A stretch of DNA of 64,000 bases from Sorex araneus. Taxonomy: Eukaryota; Chordata; Mammalia; Eulipotyphla; Soricidae. Positions 1-61,221 of the stretch are shown here, one piece after another. How positions within the stretch are numbered: the first letter of the stretch is position 1; each line of letters opens with the position of its first letter. The notes under the pieces were generated by a model that worked only from the letters and a program-made list of their open reading frames with translations, did no database searches and was not told the DNA's origin. A program made the position numbers and the translations under genes. The stretch is from the NCBI RefSeq assembly GCF_027595985.1, contig NC_073311.1:33697557-33761556 (forward strand). Reading direction: 5' to 3'.

Positions 1-95
1 TGCCAAAAACAGTAACAGTTCACACTGGAGATGTTACTGGTGCCCGCTCAAGCAAATCAATAAACAACGAGAGAAGAGTGCTACAGTGCTTCAGT
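1..95 (+). mobile_element. F2 SINE, 3' part (cut by window edge)
   Basis: It begins inside the element with TGCCAAAAACAGTAACA, followed by GAGATGTTACTGGTGCCCGC and CAAGCAAATCAATAAACAAC. This is the RTE-derived tail shared by all F2 copies in the window. The tRNA-like head lies outside the window. Confidence 0.85.
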
Positions 96-269: not shown

Positions 270-1330
270 AACAGCGAAAAGGATTTAGCAGGATTGATCA
301 TATCCACACAGTGACCAAGCTCATTGAGGTTTTGCAAGAGTTCAAGATGCCACTGTCTAATGTTCATTGATTTAAAGAAGGCTTTTGATTCTGTTGAGAC
401 TGAAGTGGTCATCAAAGTCCTAGCCAGACAAGGTGTTCAAACTCAGTACATCAGGATCCTCTGTGAGCTCTGTACGGATTCACCACCAGGATCTCACCAT
501 TCTGCAAAGAAGTGATCATCAACGTAAAGAGAAGGGTTTGGCAGGGCAACACCATTTCACCGAAACTCTTCAGTGCCACACTCGAGAACGTCATGGAACA
601 ACTGGAATGGGAAGGAATGGAAGTGAAATAGATGCTCAGCAACTACACCACTTCACTTCGCTGATGACAAATAACACCAAATATTAGCCAAGCGGCATGA
701 ATGCTGGCTGACTTCGACCATGAGTGTGGAAAGATGATACTACAACTGAATCTCATGAAGACAATGTTAATGAGAAACGAACTTGTTCCTTATGTTCCAT
801 TTGCCCTCAATAGAACGAACATCTCTGAATGCGGCAGCTATGTGTACCTAGGTAGAGAACTCAACCTGACAAATGACCTGGTGCCAGAACTGTGCAGGAG
901 GAAGAGAATGGGGTCAAAGAAGTTGTTAAGAGGACAAAGAACCTCTGGCTCAGGAAACATCTTTTTGACTCCACCATTCTTCATGCACTAACATATGCCT
1001 CAGAGACCTGAACCCTACAAAAAGAGAATGAGAAAGTTATTCTGGTATCTCAAAGAGGAATCGAAAGAACTATGCTAGGAGTATCATGTTTCACTCAAGT
1101 TAGAGAAGGAATCTGGAGTTTTGACCTCCATCAACGATTAAGAATCAGGGATGCTGTCTTGTTTGCTAAGATGTCGAAAATCAGATGGGCTGGACACATA
1201 ATGCAATTTCGAGACAACCGCTGGACTAGAGTTGTTACCAACTGGATTCCACGGGATGTGAAAAGACCCCTTGGCTGCCCACCTACAAGATGTTCAAACC
1301 CGGAACAAACGGTTTGAGGCTCTTTGTGTT
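270..1330 (+). pseudogene. Broken RTE reverse-transcriptase ORF (copy 1)
   Basis: Blocks in different frames match the RTE reverse transcriptase in the correct order. They are the finger and palm segment ending FKMPL, motif A with FIDLKKAFDS, a thumb-like block with SECGSYVYLGRE at about 820, and the C-terminal block with DNRWTR near 1215. Frameshifts occur around 350, between motif A and the FADD box, and after about 985 and 1300. In intact relatives the protein is an apurinic endonuclease plus reverse transcriptase. The endonuclease half is missing here. Confidence 0.8.
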
Positions 1331-1447
1331 CCTGGAGCAAGCAGAAGCCATTGGGCTACACTAGCGACAGGGATGAATGGAGACGTTACTGGTGCCCACT
1401 TGAACAAATCTATGAACAACAACATGACAAATGACAAGTGACAAAAA
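270..1447 (+). mobile_element. RTE-type LINE, 5'-truncated copy 1
   Basis: This is the 3' part of an RTE-clade non-LTR retrotransposon: the reverse transcriptase domain and the C-terminal region, then the terminal sequence GGAGACGTTACTGGTGCCCA and a degenerate TGACAA repeat tail near 1425-1445. Palm motif A is readable at about 360-390 (FIDLKKAFDS). The FADD catalytic box survives as DNA at 657-668 but is out of frame. Further C-terminal blocks read MLGVS at 1072 and SKIRWAGHIM at about 1175. At least three frame changes separate these blocks, so it is dead. It is homologous to the fuller copy at 19.6-22.9 kb. Assignment to RTE1_Sar, the shrew RTE family I recall from the literature, is an inference. 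Confidence 0.85.
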
Positions 1448-4800: not shown

Positions 4801-5039
4801 ATGACTGCTGTCCTTAGGGGGAAAAAAAAGCTCACAGAGAAAATGACAACAAGCAGAGGGACTTCAGAGGAAGTCCTCCTGATATCTTATCAGATTTCCA
4901 GACTCGAGGACAGAGAACAGATGAGCCTCAAGCATGAAGGAACCGGCAGAGGAACCCAGGTGTGCGAGGACTTGGGGCCAAGATCTCCAAGGCTGCTCGG
5001 ATCAGGACTGGGCCTCTTCCACCCAGATCCCCCATTTTC

Positions 5040-5515
5040 CAGTAGCTAGGCAGTAAAACCAGAAACTGCTCCCGGTGCCATGTAATCCCACCAATGGCCA
5101 AGATCTAGAGATTCTAAAACCAAGCTCCCGGACATCTAATAGCCTAGTTCTCCCTCTTGGAGAACCTGACAAGCTACTGAGATTCTATTGCCCACTCAGG
5201 AGAGCTTGGCAAGCTTCCCGTGGTGTACTCATATCCCAAATACAGTAACAGATATATACATACCTCTCGGAGAGCCTGGCAAGCTACCAACAATATTCTG
5301 CTCCTACGGCAGAGCCTGGCAAATTAACCATGGCATATTCGATATGCAAAAACAGTAACAATAGGTTTCATTCCTCTGACTCTGAAAGAGCCTACAATCA
5401 TTAGGAAAGACAGTAAAGAGCGGATGCTAAACTCTCAGGGCTGAGTGTAATAGAGATGTTACTGGTGCCCACTCAAGTAAATCTGATGAATGAGATGACA
5501 GTGATACAGTGATAC
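5040..5515 (+). mobile_element. Long F2 composite SINE with RTE 5' and 3' blocks
   Basis: The element has four blocks. First comes a poorly matched 5' stretch. Next come two successive copies of the F2 body unit (CTTGGAGAACCTGACAAGCT... ending AATACAGTAACA at about 5250, then CTCGGAGAGCCTGGCAAGCT... ending CAAAAACAGTAACAATAG at about 5365). A block from about 5366 to 5440 (CATTCCTCTGACTCTGAAAG through CTCTCAGGGC) matches the 5' region of the minus-strand RTE at about 22475-22565. The last block is the RTE 3' end (GAGATGTTACTGGTGCCCAC) with a TGACAG-like tail. No clear B-box precedes the first unit, so the true 5' end is uncertain. Confidence 0.75.
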
Positions 5516-7895: not shown

Positions 7896-8140
7896 AGCAC
7901 TATAGCACTGTCATCCTGTTGTTTATCGATTTGCTCGAGCGGACACCAGCAACATCTCCATTGTGAGACTTGTTACTGTTTTTGGCATAATGAATACGCT
8001 ACGGGTAGCTTTCAGGCTCTGCTGTGCGGGTGGGATACTCTTGGTAGCTTGCTGGGCTCTCTGAGATGGACAGAGGAATCGAACCTGGGTCGGTCACATG
8101 CAAGGCAAATGCCCTACCTGCTGTGCTATTGCTCCAGTCC
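7896..8140 (-). mobile_element. F2 SINE, full length
   Basis: A perfect 12-bp TSD, TTTGGAAATTAT, flanks it (7884-7895 and 8141-8152). On plus it reads the reversed RTE tail (CACTGTCATCCTG), CTCCATTGTGAGACTTG, the body, the reversed B-box GGAATCGAACC and a reversed head ending TGCTATTGCTCCAGTCC. Confidence 0.93.
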
Positions 8141-12865: not shown

Positions 12866-13127
12866 GGCTGGAGTGATAGCATATCGGTTGTGCATTTGCC
12901 TTTCATGTGCCCGACCTGAGCTGGATTCCTCTGCCCCTCTCGGAGAGCCCGGCAAGCTATTGAGAGTATTGCACCCCCGCAGAAGAGCCTGGCAAGCTAA
13001 CCGTGTGTATTGGATATGCCAAAAACAGTAACAATAAGTCTCTCAATGAGAGACGTTGCTGGTGCCCGCTCTATCAAATCGATGAGCAACAGGAAATAAA
13101 TAAATAAATAAATAGTAAATAAATAAA
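12866..13127 (+). mobile_element. F2 SINE with A-rich (AAAT)n tail
   Basis: The head, B-box (GGATTCCTCTGCC), F2 body and most of the RTE-derived end (GAGACGTTGCTGGTGCCCGC, ATCGATGAGCAAC) are present. After CAACAGG, however, the usual GATGACAGTGACAG is replaced by (AAAT)n. The flanks ATACATGAT and ATATATGAT (12857-12865 and 13128-13136) look like a TSD. This is the only F2 copy here with an L1-style tail. Confidence 0.85.
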
Positions 13128-16274: not shown

Positions 16275-16286
16275 TTCCATAATCTG

Positions 16287-16524
16287 GAATGATAGCACAG
16301 TGGTAGGGCATTCGCCTTTCACGCAGCTGACCCATGTTCGATTTCTCCGCCCCTCTTGGAGAGCCCGGCAAGCTACCGAGAGTATCTTGCCCGCACGGCA
16401 GAGCCTGGTAAGCTACCCGTGGCACATTGGATATGCCAAAAACAGTAACAATAAGCATCACAATGAGAGACGTTACTGGTGCCCACTCGAACAAATCGAT
16501 GAGCAACGGGATGACAGTGACAGT
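16287..16524 (+). mobile_element. F2 SINE, full length
   Basis: A perfect 12-bp TSD, TTCCATAATCTG, flanks it (16275-16286 and 16525-16536). The order is a head with AATGATAGCACAGTGGTAGG, B-box GTTCGATTTC, two body half-units (AGCCCGGCAAGCTACC and AGCCTGGTAAGCTACC), ATGCCAAAAACAGTAACA, GAGACGTTACTGGTGCCCAC, ATCGATGAGCAACGGG and the tail ATGACAGTGACAG. It is the clearest F2 reference copy in the window. Confidence 0.95.
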
Positions 16525-19607: not shown

Positions 19608-19623
19608 AATACCTGTCACCTGT

Positions 19624-22450
19624 CCTCCTGATGCTCATAGATTTGCTCGAGTGGGTACCAGTAATGTCTCCATTTGTCCCTGTCACAAACTAGTGTAGCC
19701 CAATGGCGTCTGCTCGCTCCAGGAACACGAAGAGCATCAAAGTGTTTACCAGGGTCTTGATGAAGCGGTCTGATCATCTCATTGGTAGAAGGCCAGCTAT
19801 TCTTTTGACATTCGGTGGAATCCAGTCAGTAATGTCTCTTGTCCAGTGGTTGTCTCCAGATTGCACTACATGTCCAGCCCATCTGATTTTTGATGCCTTG
19901 GCAAACGAGGCAGCATCCCTGATCCTCGATAATTGAAGTAGGTCAGAACTCCACATTCCAAATTCCTTCTCTCACTTGAGTGAAACGTGATACTCCAAGT
20001 ATAGCTCTTTCAATTCCTCTTTGGGAGACCCAAATAGCGTTCTCATCCTGTTTTTGTAGGGCCCAGGTCTCTGAGGTGTATGTTAGTGCAGGAAGAATGA
20101 TGGAGTCGAAAAGATGTGTCCAGAGTCAGAGACTCTTCTTCCTCTTAACCACTTCTTCGATGCTCTGAAAGGTGTTCCATGCTTCTCTCTTCCTCCTGTG
20201 CAGTTCTGGCACCAAGTTGTTCCTCATTGATGAGTTCTTGACCCAGGTACACATAACTGCTGCATTCAGAGATGTTCATTCCCCCAAGAACAAATGGAAT
20301 GGCAGGAACTAGTTCGTTTCTCAGGAACATTGTCTTTGTGAGATTCAGCTGCAGTCCATCCTTTCCACACTTGAGGTCGAAGTCGGCCAGCATTTGTGCC
20401 ACTTGGCTATGTTTGGTGTTATTAGAATGATGTCATCAGCGAAGCGGAGGTGGTGTAGTTGCCAACTGTCTATCTTCACTTCCATTCCTTCCCATTCCAG
20501 TCATTGCATGACATTCTTGAGGGTGGCACTGAAGAGTTTCAGTGAAATGGTATCACCCTGACAAACCTCTCTCTTTATGTCAATGATCACTTCCTTGTAG
20601 AATGGTGAGATCCTGGTGGTGTAATACAGCTCATGGAGGATCCTGATGTTCTGAGTTTGAACAACCTGTTTAACTAGGGCTTCGATGATCATTTCAGTCT
20701 CAACAGAATCAAAGGCCTTCTTTCTTTAAAACAATGAACGTTAGACAGAGCGGCATCTTGAACTCTCACGAAACCTCAATGAGCTCAGTCACTGTGTGGA
20801 TATGGTCTATAGTACTTAATCCTTTTAGGAACCCAGCTTGCTTGCATGGTTGTCCTTTGTTTACTGTTCTACCAAACCTATTCAGGAATGACTTCAGTGA
20901 AAAACTTGTAGATGACGAACAACAGAAAGTTCAGGTGATAGTTGCTGATGTTGTGGATGTCTCCCTTCTTGTACAACAGAATGGTCCTTCTGGTTTTCCA
21001 TAGGGACGGAAACTTACATTCAGACAGGTAGCATGTGAAGTGCCAAGCCAGTGTATTGATGAGTACTGGATTGATGAGATCTTTCAGGTGTTCGGGTCTG
21101 ACCTTGTCTGGACCGGGTGCTGTATGCTTCTTTACCTAGGATATGGCATGTCAGATTTCGGAAGAGAAAACGCTGGGAACAACATATCCATTCTGTGGAA
21201 TTTGGTATGTAGGTAGGTGAACATGGCTATTGAAGAGACATGAGTAGATAGAAGTCATGGATAACCTTCTCCATTGCCCTCTGGAAGATGTGATAGATCC
21301 ATCAGGACATCAGAGGGAATTCATCATGGTCTTATAGTTGGTGAAGGACAAGTGGGCGTTATTAATACTTTTCCTGGCTTCTGCCACATTGGCCAACACT
21401 GCTGCTCTTCTCTCTTTGTGGTCTTCCTTTATCACTTCTCTGCACAGCTTTGCTAACTTGGACGTTACCTTCTGATTGCCTGAGGCTCGCACCAAACCAC
21501 ATTGGTGAATGATCTTGAGAGTTTCCAAAGACAGGCATCTTTTTGTGGTTTTCTTACTCTTGGCATTCCTTGAGCAGTCATGGAGATGTTGAACCAGTTG
21601 ATTGTATTTCTCATCAATGTTGTCAACGACAGCATCTTCCCATATTGCCAGAATAGTGTCAAAGAAATCCCAGTTGGTAGTCATTCTGGGAATCCTCTTC
21701 TTAACCTTTGCAGCCCTTTTCCCTCACTCTGTGAAGTAGAATTTTGCATGAAGGAGACAGTGGTCTTATCCCGTTTGGAATTTTGGAACAGTGACATCAG
21801 TCAGGCAAAACTGTAGATTGAATATGATGTGATCAATTTCATTGTAAAACTGCCCACCGGGAGATGCCCGTGTCCAACATTTAGATTCAGCCTTCTGGTT
21901 CTGCGAGTTACCATGGATGGTCTTGGTCAACATGATGAACTCAGTCTTTCACCCTGTTCGTTCCATTTTAGTCCTGTGTCCTGATATGGAGTTCTTCAGG
22001 CTACCTTATCGGTCCTTATTTGGCATTAAAATCACTCACAATGACCTTGTAGAAGGTTTGTTCTTTATAGAACTTCTCAAGCTCCATGTAGAACTTCTCA
22101 ATTTCTTCTTCATTGTAGTTGGATGTTGGTATCTAGACAATGAAGATAGAAACTGCCAGCAATGAGCCACATCTTTCAAACGTAAGTGTCTGATTCAGGC
22201 TGTTAGATATTCAAACAAATCGATGCTCATGGACAAGTTCATGTTGAAAGGACACCGACACCACTGATGCTTCTACCGTCACATCTTCCAAAGAACAGTT
22301 CTTCTCTTGTGTCAAAAACAGTGTGATGTGTTCAATGCCTTCTAGTCTCGGTCAATCCAATGATGTCATACTTGATCTTCCGTGATTGCACCATCAGGTC
22401 CTCAATGAATGCTTCCGATGCCAGCATATGTGCATTGAAAGTACAGTCAT
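19624..22450 (-). pseudogene. Broken RTE endonuclease-reverse transcriptase ORF (copy 2)
   Basis: Blocks occur in the right order on minus. The endonuclease start has ASEAFIEDLMVQSRKIKYD followed by GLTETR (catalytic Glu at about 22345). SDFNAK (normally GDFNAK, about 22020-22045) follows. A linker has WEDAVVDNIDE (about 21640). The RT begins QAGF...STIDHIHTV (about 20800), then QGDTIS (about 20555), FADD (20432-20443), SECSSYVYLG (about 20255) and SKIRWAGHV (about 19870). The C-terminus reads WRHYWYPLEQIYEHQED. Several frameshifts and stops separate the blocks, so no intact enzyme can be made. In living relatives this single protein nicks target DNA and copies the RNA into it. Confidence 0.85.
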
Positions 22451-22569
22451 TTTAGTCCTTCATTTTGGCAGCCCAGTTTGGCCCTGAGAGCTTATCAGCC
22501 TCTCCTTGCTCATCCTTCCCAATGCTGCTGCCTTGGGGGCTCTTTCAGGGTCAGGGGAATAAGACTCAT

Positions 22570-22680
22570 TATTATTACTGTTTTTGGCACATCAAATACA
22601 CCATGGGTAGCTTGCTAGTCTCTGCCGTGTAAGCAGAATAATCTTGGTAGCTGGCCGGGCTCTCCAAGAGGGATGGAGGC
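22570..22680 (-). other. F2 SINE body embedded in the RTE 5' UTR
   Basis: On minus this reads CCTCCATCCCTCTTGGAGAG, CCCGGCCAGCTACC, GGCAGAGACTAGCAAGCTAC and TGTGCCAAAAACAGTAATAA. It is colinear with the F2 body, then continues without a break into the RTE 5' region. Upstream, GACTGATAGCACCTGTAAGG (about 22715) faintly resembles the SINE head, but there is no B-box. Confidence 0.75.
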
Positions 22681-22860
22681 TTTTGGGACAGTCTCTAATT
22701 GCCCTTACAGGTGCTATCAGTCTACCAAATGCAAGTTTTTGGTTGACTGTCATATTGTAATGATCTACACAATGGCAAACACACACCCGCCTGAATCTCT
22801 GGGCAGCATCTGTTGGTTCCCTCTTCATCGGTTAGCACCATTGCCACCCCCCGCCCAATC

Positions 22861-23053
22861 ACAATGAGGTGGTGACAAACAACACAAAATGAATGATTTC
22901 AGTTCTGCTTTGGGGCATGAGCTGGGGTTTGGGATGGAAACAATCAAAATATGGTGGTGGGAAAGTGTAACGGTGGTGGGATTGGTGTTCAAATATTAAA
23001 TGTAATTAAATATTGTGAACTACATTATAAAAATAAAACATAATTTAAAAAAT
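22861..23053 (+). mobile_element. Retroposon E, 3' part (D family)
   Basis: It continues the D-family order exactly where the 5' part broke off: AATGATTTCAGTTCTGC, GGGGTTTGGGATGGAAAC, GGTGGGATTGGTGTTC, AAATATTAAATGTAATTAAA and an A-rich end. CTGCAG follows at 23054-23059 and matches the 5' flank of E. Confidence 0.75.
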
Positions 23054-23540: not shown

Positions 23541-23788
23541 ATAAAGTCACTGTCATTGTCACTGTCATTCTGTTGTTCATCGATCTGTTCAAGCAGGCAC
23601 CAATAACGTCTCTCATTGTGAGACTTAATGTTACTGTTTTTGGCATGTCTAATACGTCATGGGTAGCTTGCCAGGCTCTGCCATGGAGGCGAGATACTCT
23701 CGGTAGCTTGCCGGGCTCTCTGAGAGGGGCAGAGGAATCGAGCACGGAGGGTTGGCCGCATGAAAGGCGAATGCCCAACCGCTGTGCT
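23541..23788 (-). mobile_element. F2 SINE, head clipped by later L1 insertion
   Basis: Reversed tail CACTGTCATTGTCACTGTCA, CATTGTGAGACTTAATG, body and reversed head up to CCGCTGTGCTA. The final reversed GCTCCAGCC is missing where the L1 copy begins. Confidence 0.9.
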
Positions 23789-23803
23789 AAAAAGTTTAAA
23801 TTT

Positions 23804-28497: not shown

Positions 28498-28722
28498 GGA
28501 CTGGAGCGATAGCACAGCGGATAGGGCGTTGCCTTTCACACGGTTGACCCGGGTTTGATTCTCCATCCCTCTCGTAGAGCCCGGCAAGCTACAAGAGTAT
28601 CCCGCCCACACGACAGAACCTGGCAAGCTCCCCAATATGCCAAAAATAGTAACAATAAGTCTCACAATAGAGATGTTACCAGTGACCGCTGGAACAAATC
28701 GATGAACAATGGGACAATAGTG
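28498..28722 (+). mobile_element. F2 SINE, full length
   Basis: A perfect 13-bp TSD, CTACCAAATACAT, flanks it (28485-28497 and 28723-28735). The head, B-box GGGTTTGATTCTCC, body, RTE-derived end and a degenerate GGGACAATAGTG tail are all present. Confidence 0.93.
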
Positions 28723-31463: not shown

Positions 31464-31688
31464 CACTGTATCACTGTATCACTGTCATCCATTTGCTCAT
31501 CAATTTACTCAAGTGGGCACCAGTAATGTCTCCATTGTGAAACTTGTTGTTACTGTTTTTGGCATATCGAATATGCCAAGGGTAGCTTGCCAGGCTCTGC
31601 TGGGCTCCCTAAGAGGGGCGGAGGAATGGAACCCGGGTAGGCCGAATGCAAGGCAAATGCCCTACCCACTGTGCTATCTCTCCAGCCC
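31464..31688 (-). mobile_element. F2 SINE with body deletion
   Basis: A perfect 11-bp TSD, ATTTTATAATT, flanks it (31453-31463 and 31689-31699). About 30 bp between the two GCTTGCC-GGCTC half-units of the body are missing, consistent with slippage between those half-units. The head is complete. Confidence 0.92.
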
Positions 31689-35689: not shown

Positions 35690-35832
35690 GGTCACTGTCA
35701 CTGTCACTGTCATCCCTTTGTTCATCGATTTGCTCAAGTGGGCACCAGTAATGTTTCCATGTGAGACTTGTTGTTACTGTTTTTGGCATATAGATCATGC
35801 CACGGGTAGATTGCCAGGCTCTGCCCTGTGGG
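35690..35832 (-). mobile_element. F2 SINE, 5'-truncated
   Basis: The reversed RTE tail has three CACTGT repeats, then CATCCCTTTGTTCATCGATT and the body up to GCCAGGCTCTGCC, where it stops. The flanks GAATGCATTCA and AAATGCATGCA are a decayed TSD, so truncation happened at insertion, as in LINE-style target-primed copying. Confidence 0.88.
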
Positions 35833-36025: not shown

Positions 36026-36250
36026 TGACCTATAGTACAGTAGGTAGGGTGTTTGCCTTGCACAAGGCTGACCTGGGTTGGATTCCTCCGTCCCTCTCGA
36101 AGAATCTGGCAAGCTACCAGGAGTACCCCACTGGCTACTTGCGGCGTATTCAATGTCCCAAATACAGTAACAACAAGTCTTACAATGGAGACGTTACGAG
36201 TGCCCGCTCAAGCAAATAGAAGTACAACTTGACCACAGTGCTACAGTGCT
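36026..36250 (+). mobile_element. F2 SINE, diverged
   Basis: Head remnant CTATAGTACAGTAGGTAGGG, B-box GGTTGGATTCC, body, AATACAGTAACAACAAG, GGAGACGTTACGAGTGCCCG. The body has a deletion relative to the consensus. Confidence 0.85.
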
Positions 36251-40844: not shown

Positions 40845-40952
40845 AAAAATATGGGATGCTTAACAAATTTGCGTGTCATCCTTGCACAGAGGCCATGCTA
40901 ATCTTCTCTGTATCGTTCTAATTTTAGTATATATGCTGCCAAAGCGAGCGTT
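40845..40952 (-). pseudogene. RNU6: U6 snRNA retro-pseudogene, full length
   Basis: Reading minus, it matches U6 from about its 5' end (CGCTCGCTTTGGCAGCATAT) through ATACAGAGAAGATTAGCATG and GATGACACGCAAATT to the terminal T-run (AAAAA on plus at 40845-40849). U6 is the spliceosomal RNA that base-pairs with the 5' splice site and U2. A handful of changes are visible (for example TTCGG to TTTGG, and CCCCTGCGC to CTCTGTGC). It has a TSD-bounded position and is joined to a SINE, so it is a processed copy and not a functional locus. The plus-strand flank has no PSE or TATA element expected of a U6 gene that I can see. Confidence 0.93.
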
Positions 40953-43380: not shown

Positions 43381-43594
43381 TGCTGTCACTGTCACTGTCA
43401 CTGTCATCCTGTTATTGATCGATTTGCTCGAGCGGGCACCAGTAACATCTCCACTGTGAGACTTGTTGTTACTGTTTTTGGCATATCGAATATGCCACAG
43501 GGAGCTTGCCAGGCTCTGCCATGTGGGCAAGATACTCTCAGTCAGGCTCTCCGACAGGGGCAGAGGAATTGAACCCGGGTCACACTGCTAAAAT
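43381..43594 (-). mobile_element. F2 SINE, head mostly deleted
   Basis: Four CACTGT tail repeats, ATCGATTTGCTCGAGCGGGC, body and reversed B-box GAATTGAACCCGGGTC are present. The A-box half is then almost wholly missing (CACACTGCTA). Confidence 0.9.
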
Positions 43595-46085: not shown

Positions 46086-46110
46086 TCTATCTTGGTTTAC
46101 TTGAAATAAT

Positions 46111-46362
46111 CACTGTATCACTGTCATCCTGTTCATCGATTTGCTCGAGTGGGCACCAGTAACGTCTCCATTTTTGAGATTTGAGATTTGTTGTTACTGT
46201 TTTGGGGCATGTTGAATGCGCCATGATAGCTTGCCAGGCTCTGCTGTGCAGGCAAGATACTCTCCGTAGCTTGTGGGGCTCTCCGAGAGGGACAGAAGAA
46301 TCGAAACCGGGTCAGCCACGTGCAAGGCAAACGCCTTACCCACTATGCTATCGCTCCAGCCA
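46111..46362 (-). mobile_element. F2 SINE, full length
   Basis: The TSD TACTTGAAATAAT (46098-46110) against TACCTGAAATAAT (46363-46375). It contains a small internal duplication (GAGATTTGAGATTTG). Confidence 0.93.
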
Positions 46363-60969: not shown

Positions 60970-61221
60970 GGGCTGAAGCGATAGCACAGCGGTAGGACGT
61001 TCACCTTTCACATGGCTGACCGGTGTTCGATTCCTCCGCCCCTCTCAGAGAGCCCGGCAAGCTACCAAGTATCGGCCCACACAGCAGAGCCTGGCAAGCT
61101 ACCCATGGCGTATTCGATATGCCAAAAACAGTAACAATAAGTCTCACAATGAGAGATGTTACTGGTGCCCAATCGAGCAAATCGATGAGCAGCACGATGA
61201 CAGTGACAGTGTGACAGTGTG
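60970..61221 (+). mobile_element. F2 SINE, full length, inside the L1
   Basis: A perfect 11-bp TSD, TTCTCATAAAT, flanks it (60959-60969 and 61222-61232). Head GGGCTGAAGCGATAGCACAG, B-box GTTCGATTCC, body, RTE-derived end and the tail ATGACAGTGACAGTGTGACA. One of the best-preserved F2 copies. Confidence 0.95.

What the first reader, a model, noticed from the sequence alone, without database searches (positions are those of the whole stretch)
19608..22860. F2 SINE looks like a tRNA-headed, internally deleted satellite of a shrew RTE LINE
Seen: the RTE copy carries the F2 body inside its 5' UTR (22570-22680), and its last codons and tail (19624-19676) are the F2 3' end. F2 copies therefore contain RTE 5' sequence joined to RTE 3' sequence, behind a tRNA-like head. 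Known: BovB with Bov-A/Bov-tA in ruminants has this design. Inferred: F2 arose in shrews by the same route independently and uses RTE enzymes. I do not know whether this pairing has been described.
Basis: partly seen in the sequence, partly recalled or inferred. Interest (0 to 1): 0.85.

Follow-up and report, generated by a model that had tools for sequence, protein, structure and literature searches.

The report
Shrew SINE riding nematode-type RTE LINE
A very common short repeat in a shrew genome is a patchwork: its start comes from the shrew's ordinary tRNA-type SINE, and the rest from the two ends of a LINE jumping gene whose closest relatives are in parasitic worms, so it probably borrows that LINE's copying enzyme.

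Summary
Of 30 RTE loci (one the window copy) found with a 5' ORF query that excludes the F2 body, 27 carry the body, whole or in part, just before the ORF; in the other 3 homology starts near or after its end. Of 20 copies fetched at length, chosen for having the body, 17 also have the F2 3' block. Consensus F2 matches the RTE 5' UTR at 104/111 and the 3' end at 67/75. F2 copies show target-site duplications (14 of 24 exact >=8 nt; 5.5% of 600 mismatched pairs).

Additions: the F2 head equals the head of the shrew SINE SOR (62/63). The RTE is nematode-type: of the best 120 of 715 RT hits, those with a named organism are strongyle nematodes plus one Sorex protein. This fits RTE1_Sar, reported as horizontally transferred (PMC6542046).

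The design is known (Bov-tA, Ped-2, AviRTE SINEs). My paper searches showed no description of this shrew pair; Repbase and Dfam were not searchable. New member of a known kind; mobilisation by RTE is inferred.

The parts
19613..22880 (-). RTE-clade LINE copy (RTE1_Sar-like), decayed, 5' UTR variant A
   Evidence: Pfam RVT_1 and Exo_endo_phos_2 on sister copies; 5' limit approximate, from rows of sister copies
22570..22680 (-). F2 body inside the RTE 5' UTR
19613..19674 (-). F2 3' block at the RTE 3' end: last ~19 codons, stop codon (19616-19618) and start of the tail repeat
22805..22883 (-). decayed remnant of an HDV-ribozyme-like 5' end of RTE variant A (candidate only)
   Evidence: this copy itself does not fit the descriptor
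1..88 (+). F2 copy, cut by window edge
7906..8140 (-). F2 copy, both joins
12867..13094 (+). F2 copy, both joins
16283..16524 (+). F2 copy, both joins; query of the genome search
23554..23789 (-). F2 copy, both joins
28498..28722 (+). F2 copy, both joins
31470..31688 (-). F2 copy with internal deletion
35699..35832 (-). F2 copy, 5' part missing
36032..36248 (+). F2 copy, divergent
43393..43582 (-). F2 copy, head incomplete
46109..46360 (-). F2 copy, both joins
60970..61214 (+). F2 copy, both joins
5251..5515 (+). headless RTE deletion derivative (called FN here): body plus ~90 nt more of the 5' UTR joined to the 3' block
4991..5250 (+). 5' piece of a second FN-like element with a non-tRNA head
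275..1444 (+). second RTE copy, 5'-truncated

Best explanation
F2 is a non-autonomous retroposon (SINE) made of three joined pieces: a Pol III promoter head shared with the resident SINE SOR; a 111-nt block of the 5' UTR of a nematode-type RTE LINE (RTE1_Sar-like); and that LINE's last ~60 nt, which are its final codons, stop codon and tail repeats. Shown: the three pieces, their colinearity with the LINE, the target-site duplications, and both LINE blocks in most sampled LINE copies. Inferred: Pol III transcribes F2 from the head; the RTE protein recognises the F2 3' block and tail repeats, primes reverse transcription at a nick and inserts the copy; and the chimera arose by RT template switching (short microhomology is possible at both joins).
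For: Body in the 5' UTR of 27 of 30 RTE loci found by an ORF query, window copy included, 4 of the 27 with only part of it. 3' block in 17 of 20 longer copies. Consensus identities 104/111 and 67/75. Head identical to SOR at 62 of 63 aligned positions. Exact duplications of >=8 nt in 14 of 24 copies against 5.5% of 600 mismatched pairs. A box and B box matches, no TTTT (box patterns recalled). 40 of 40 scored genome matches to a whole F2, the query itself included, span at least 228 of 241 nt, on 11 contigs. RT domain above its Pfam cut-off and endonuclease domain just below it in sister RTE copies. RTE tails printed mostly repeat GATACAAGT; several F2 copies repeat GATACAGT, one base shorter.
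Against: No expression, retrotransposition or binding data. The sampled RTE tails repeat GATACAAGT while F2 tails repeat GACAGT, GATACAGT or GCTACAGT, so the exact donor subfamily was not found. The RTE sample is the set closest to the window copy, not random; the 20 longer copies were picked for having the body. 10 of 24 F2 copies lack an exact >=8-nt duplication, and in 2 of the 14 positives (L016, L004_2596) the repeat is not well placed at the element ends. RTE upstream sequence of variant A is mildly head-like (41 of 500 shuffles reach its score).
Confidence: 0.88

Rival explanations
1. The LINE captured the SINE: an F2 copy inserted in, or recombined with, an RTE 5' UTR and then spread with the LINE.
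For: Body sequences of F2, RTE variant A and variant B are about equally distant (F2-A 104/111, F2-B 102/111, A-B 101/111), so sequence alone gives no direction. Upstream sequence of variant A is mildly similar to the F2 head (41 of 500 shuffles reach its score).
Against: In the aligned RTE copies of both variants the body runs on into shared 5' UTR sequence on both sides (36/44 identical just upstream between A and B). Variant B shows no head similarity (430 of 500 shuffles). No F2 3' block follows the body in those rows.
Confidence: 0.05
2. F2 is mobilised by L1, like SOR, and merely carries RTE-derived sequence.
For: F2 shares its head with SOR, whose consensus ends in an A-rich tail as expected of an L1-mobilised SINE (L1 link recalled).
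Against: The F2 consensus has no A-rich tail; it ends in short repeats close to the RTE tail unit. One window copy (12867-13094) does end in an AAATA-type repeat. The RTE 3' end is retained at 67/75.
Confidence: 0.07
3. A variant of the route, compatible with the best explanation: F2 came from the headless derivative FN (RTE 5' UTR joined to RTE 3' end) by a further deletion and gain of the SOR-type head, not directly from the RTE.
For: 4 FN copies were seen (window 5251-5515, L039, L052, L033). 2 of the 4 (L039, L052) have GTCTCA where F2 has it and the RTE consensus has GCCTCA; 2 of the 4 (window, L039) have ACAGTG-type tails.
Against: The other FN copies do not share these letters, FN joins are not all identical, and the genome search for FN did not complete (and repeats).
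Confidence: 0.3

Closest known systems
Bov-tA / Bov-A2 with BovB (ruminants)
   Same: Listed as SINE/LINE pairs: Bov-tA with a tRNA-Glu promoter, Bov-A2 with the 5' end of BovB (PMC3747384 Table 1, passages)
   Different: Partner LINE here is nematode-type; the head is that of SOR
Ped-2 with BovB_Pca (springhare)
   Same: Head from an existing SINE (ID) joined to LINE sequence (PMC3747384 Table 1, passages); the two-piece 5' plus 3' structure is recalled from Gogolevsky et al. 2008, seen only as a citation
   Different: Different host, head donor and LINE lineage
AviRTE SINEs (ManaSINE1, GymnSINE and others; birds)
   Different: AviRTE has a ~40-bp 3' UTR; here the 3' block overlaps the last codons and stop. 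Different host and RTE
RTE1_Sar (Sorex araneus LINE)
   Same: RT piece closest to strongyle nematodes, Heligmosomoides and Nippostrongylus among them, as reported for RTE1_Sar (PMC6542046; abstract, outline and passages)
   Different: No letter-by-letter comparison with the Repbase entry was possible; the term SINE occurs 0 times in that paper's main text
SOR (shrew SINE; name recalled)
   Same: Head consensus identical to the F2 head at 62 of 63 aligned positions
   Different: SOR continues into its own body and an A-rich tail; F2 continues into RTE sequence

Membership tests
tRNA-type SINE | Internal Pol III A and B boxes | tested here: met
   A-box pattern at 13 (a second match at 141) and B box at 56 of the F2 consensus, no TTTT
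tRNA-type SINE | Dispersed copies with target-site duplications | tested here: met
   14 of 24 exact >=8 nt against 5.5% of 600 mismatched pairs; 40 of 40 scored genome matches near end to end on 11 contigs, query included
tRNA-type SINE | Transcribed by Pol III | not testable with these tools
   needs RNA data
RTE-mobilised SINE with bipartite LINE tail | Fragment of the LINE 5' UTR | tested here: met
   104/111 at consensus; body whole or in part in 27 of 30 RTE loci
RTE-mobilised SINE with bipartite LINE tail | LINE 3' end and tail repeats | tested here: met
   67/75 at consensus; tail units similar, not identical
RTE-mobilised SINE with bipartite LINE tail | Mobilised by the LINE protein | not testable with these tools
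   needs a retrotransposition assay
BovB / Bov-tA | Partner LINE is BovB | tested here: not met
   Among the best 120 of 715 RT hits those with an organism name are nematodes plus one Sorex protein; 5 have no name and hits 121-715 were not shown
RTE1_Sar | Closest relatives in strongyle nematodes | tested here: met
   against PMC6542046
RTE1_Sar | Sequence identity to the Repbase consensus | not testable with these tools
   Repbase not held

The most novel reading that the evidence does not exclude
The 111-nt 5' UTR block is kept because the RTE protein needs an RNA signal at both ends, as proposed for R2 (recalled). It would be a near-minimal 5' signal: the block is shared by RTE variants A and B, FN and F2, and AviRTE SINEs (PMC4844689) and, as recalled, BovB SINEs kept 5' pieces too. 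A nematode-type LINE would then have supplied a complete two-ended mobilisation code that turned a resident SINE head into an abundant repeat (12 copies in this 64-kb window; simple extrapolation ~4x10^5 per genome).
Probability: 0.3. Interest if true: 0.72.

Novelty: new member of a known kind. Interest (0 to 1): 0.5.

Why it matters
If F2 is moved by RTE1_Sar, a LINE of probable nematode origin has shaped a mammal genome beyond its own copies, by pairing with a resident SINE head. It is a further case in which an RTE SINE keeps both a 5' UTR piece and the 3' end, which makes the question of a needed 5' RNA signal testable with a short, defined element. The 3' block overlapping coding sequence is a further constraint to test.

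Tried and rejected
Chance match: rejected. SINE landing beside one RTE copy: rejected. LINE captured the SINE with its head: not supported (variant A 41 of 500 shuffles, B 430 of 500; 40 and 402 of 500 without the shared end). Structure: fold z = -2.17 for the body, -0.76 for the tail, -2.59 for whole F2, 200 shuffles each; all 13 sites that vary among F2, A and B consensus bodies are transitions, so I claim no covariation. Headless F2 copies: L002 and L028 start at the head/body join; I saw no clear duplications by eye, undecided. HDV-like ribozyme at the RTE 5' end: candidate only. A hybrid consensus fits my descriptor, 2 of 10 variant-A copies fit in full; background was 0 in 128 kb of window strands but 2 positions in 32.4 kb of locus flanks. 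Rfam on 13 loci gave 7 matches up to E 5, one of this type: L020, 25 bits against a gathering score of 44, E 1.4. PDB search of the RT piece: 2 distinct sequences, both 'Reverse transcriptase-like protein', best E 2.5e-05. ARAGORN's 2 tRNA calls overlap head-only matches. Whole-genome copy counts: not obtained; the tool scored 40 of 2949, 6744 and 4924 candidates.

Full report
What was checked. The window is part of a 2.4-Gb genome in 65 contigs. It looks like a shrew: a published Soricidae SINE primer (PMC8608897, passages) matches 8 times with up to 3 mismatches, 3 of them exact, and 0 in 100 shuffles, and one RT hit is a named Sorex araneus protein.

The two blocks. Within the RTE copy on the minus strand, the F2 body (22680-22570) and the F2 3' block (19674-19613) match F2 copies across the window. 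By a junction criterion there are 12 F2 copies in the window, 10 with both joins. The 3' block covers the stop codon and the last ~19 codons, so F2's 3' end is largely coding sequence of the LINE.

The refutation test. A search with 621 nt of the 5' ORF region, which excludes the body, scored 40 of 6744 candidates; 30 were cut out as loci, one of them the window copy. In 27 of 30 the body sits just before the ORF; L019, L023, L025 and L026 have only part of it. In L015 and L021 homology to the other copies starts near or after the body's end, and L032 matches only from position 39 of the query, so these three look 5'-truncated. I fetched 20 of the 29 other loci at 4.4 kb, leaving out L015, L019, L021, L023, L025, L026, L032, L037 and L038; all 20 have the body, as they were picked to, and 17 of 20 have the 3' block, two of them in part (L042, L043). 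In L045, L052 and L055 the RTE match stops early. The sample is the set nearest the window copy, not a random one. The body query itself returned F2: all 7 loci cut out besides the window's hold an F2 at the matched place.

Consensus comparison. From 24 of the 30 RTE 5' ends, 17 of 20 RTE 3' ends and the 26 F2 copies that were near complete, F2 matches the RTE 5' UTR at 104/111 and the RTE 3' end at 67/75. Mean divergence from consensus: RTE body 11.8% (24, both variants pooled), F2 body 10.1% (26), RTE tail 13.1% (17), F2 tail 12.5% (26), F2 head 15.3% (26); SOR head 12.8% and body 10.8% (30). The families are of broadly similar, not recent, age.

F2 as a mobile unit. Exact repeats of at least 8 nt between the two flanks occur in 14 of 24 copies, against 5.5% of 600 mismatched pairings; 2 of 26 copies were dropped for lying at an edge, and in 2 of the 14 the repeat is not well placed. 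The consensus has A-box and B-box matches and no TTTT. A whole-F2 genome query scored 40 of 4924 candidates; all 40, the query itself included, span at least 228 of 241 nt, on 11 contigs. Twelve copies in 64 kb would mean about 4x10^5 in the genome; that is simple extrapolation from one window.

Origin of the head. The F2 head consensus equals the SOR head at 62 of 63 aligned positions. F2 is therefore a SOR-type head plus RTE 5' block plus RTE 3' block. Which of SOR and F2 had the head first is not settled. The name SOR is recalled.

Which LINE. Pieces of sister copies match Pfam RVT_1 (E 4.1e-11, above its cut-off) and Exo_endo_phos_2 (E 5.1e-06, 26.8 bits against a cut-off of 27.4). The RT piece, from L050, gave 715 protein hits with 120 shown. 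This agrees with RTE1_Sar, which Dunemann and Wasmuth (PMC6542046; abstract, outline and passages seen) found in S. araneus and nine nematodes but no other mammal.

Variants. The RTE 5' UTR comes in at least two forms, A and B, which differ further upstream but share the body (101/111) and about 44 nt before it (36/44). A headless derivative, FN, joins a longer piece of the 5' UTR to the 3' block; 4 copies were seen (window 5251-5515, L039, L052, L033). Headless forms are listed elsewhere (Bov-A2, RTE1-N1_LA; PMC3747384 Table 1, passages).

Direction. At body level F2, A and B are about equally distant, so direction rests on continuity: in the aligned LINE copies the body is unbroken with its flanks and no F2 3' block follows it. 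Similarity of the upstream sequence to the F2 head is weak in A (41 of 500 shuffles reach it) and absent in B (430 of 500). LINE to SINE is the simpler route.

What is known. PMC4844689 (passages) describes AviRTE SINEs with a bipartite tail from parts of the 5' and 3' UTRs, in birds that share the LINE with nematodes. PMC3747384 (passages) lists BovB and RTE pairs in mammals; 'shrew' occurs 0 times in its main text. Searches whose listings showed no description of this shrew pair. Some listings were capped (20 of 26, 20 of 22, 30 of 219, 20 of 1157), I opened only some papers, and the library lacks most subscription journals. Gogolevsky et al. 2008 was seen only as a citation. Repbase and Dfam could not be searched, and a repeat this common may well be listed there.

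Verdict. The finding is real and the reading is right in outline. It is a new member of a known kind, with a SOR-type head, a nematode-type partner LINE, and a 3' block in coding sequence as its particular features.

Noticed in passing
L020:1149-1220 and, as rows, L010, L014, L022, L029, L036, L038, window 22883-22805 (-): The 5' end of RTE variant A looks like an HDV-like self-cleaving ribozyme; weak Rfam hit only, descriptor fit of a hybrid consensus and 2 of 10 copies. RTE ribozymes are mentioned in PMC3774820 (passages).
   Followed up: partly
L031, upstream 880-1200 (oriented): RTE variant B 5' UTR may contain a tandem repeat: L031 carries, further upstream, a stretch like a downstream 5' UTR part of the other B copies.
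   Followed up: no
window 4991-5515; L052; L033: FN-like elements carry long non-tRNA heads; the window and L052 heads agree over more than 100 nt, L033 differs upstream.
   Followed up: partly
F2 consensus, join of the two LINE blocks: The join holds a 5-bp hairpin, GTCTC to GAGAC, with one arm on each side of the join.
   Followed up: no
F2 copies: F2 seems to have subfamilies: heads with TTTCA mostly go with (GACAGT)n tails, heads with TTGCA mostly with (GATACAGT)n or (GCTACAGT)n; there are exceptions (L005_1429, window 28501).
   Followed up: partly
window 40845-40951 (-): U6 snRNA match at 99.6 bits, perhaps a retropseudogene.
   Followed up: no
L002:1434-1609, L028:2541-2714: Two F2 copies start at the head/body join, without clear duplications by eye.
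   Followed up: partly
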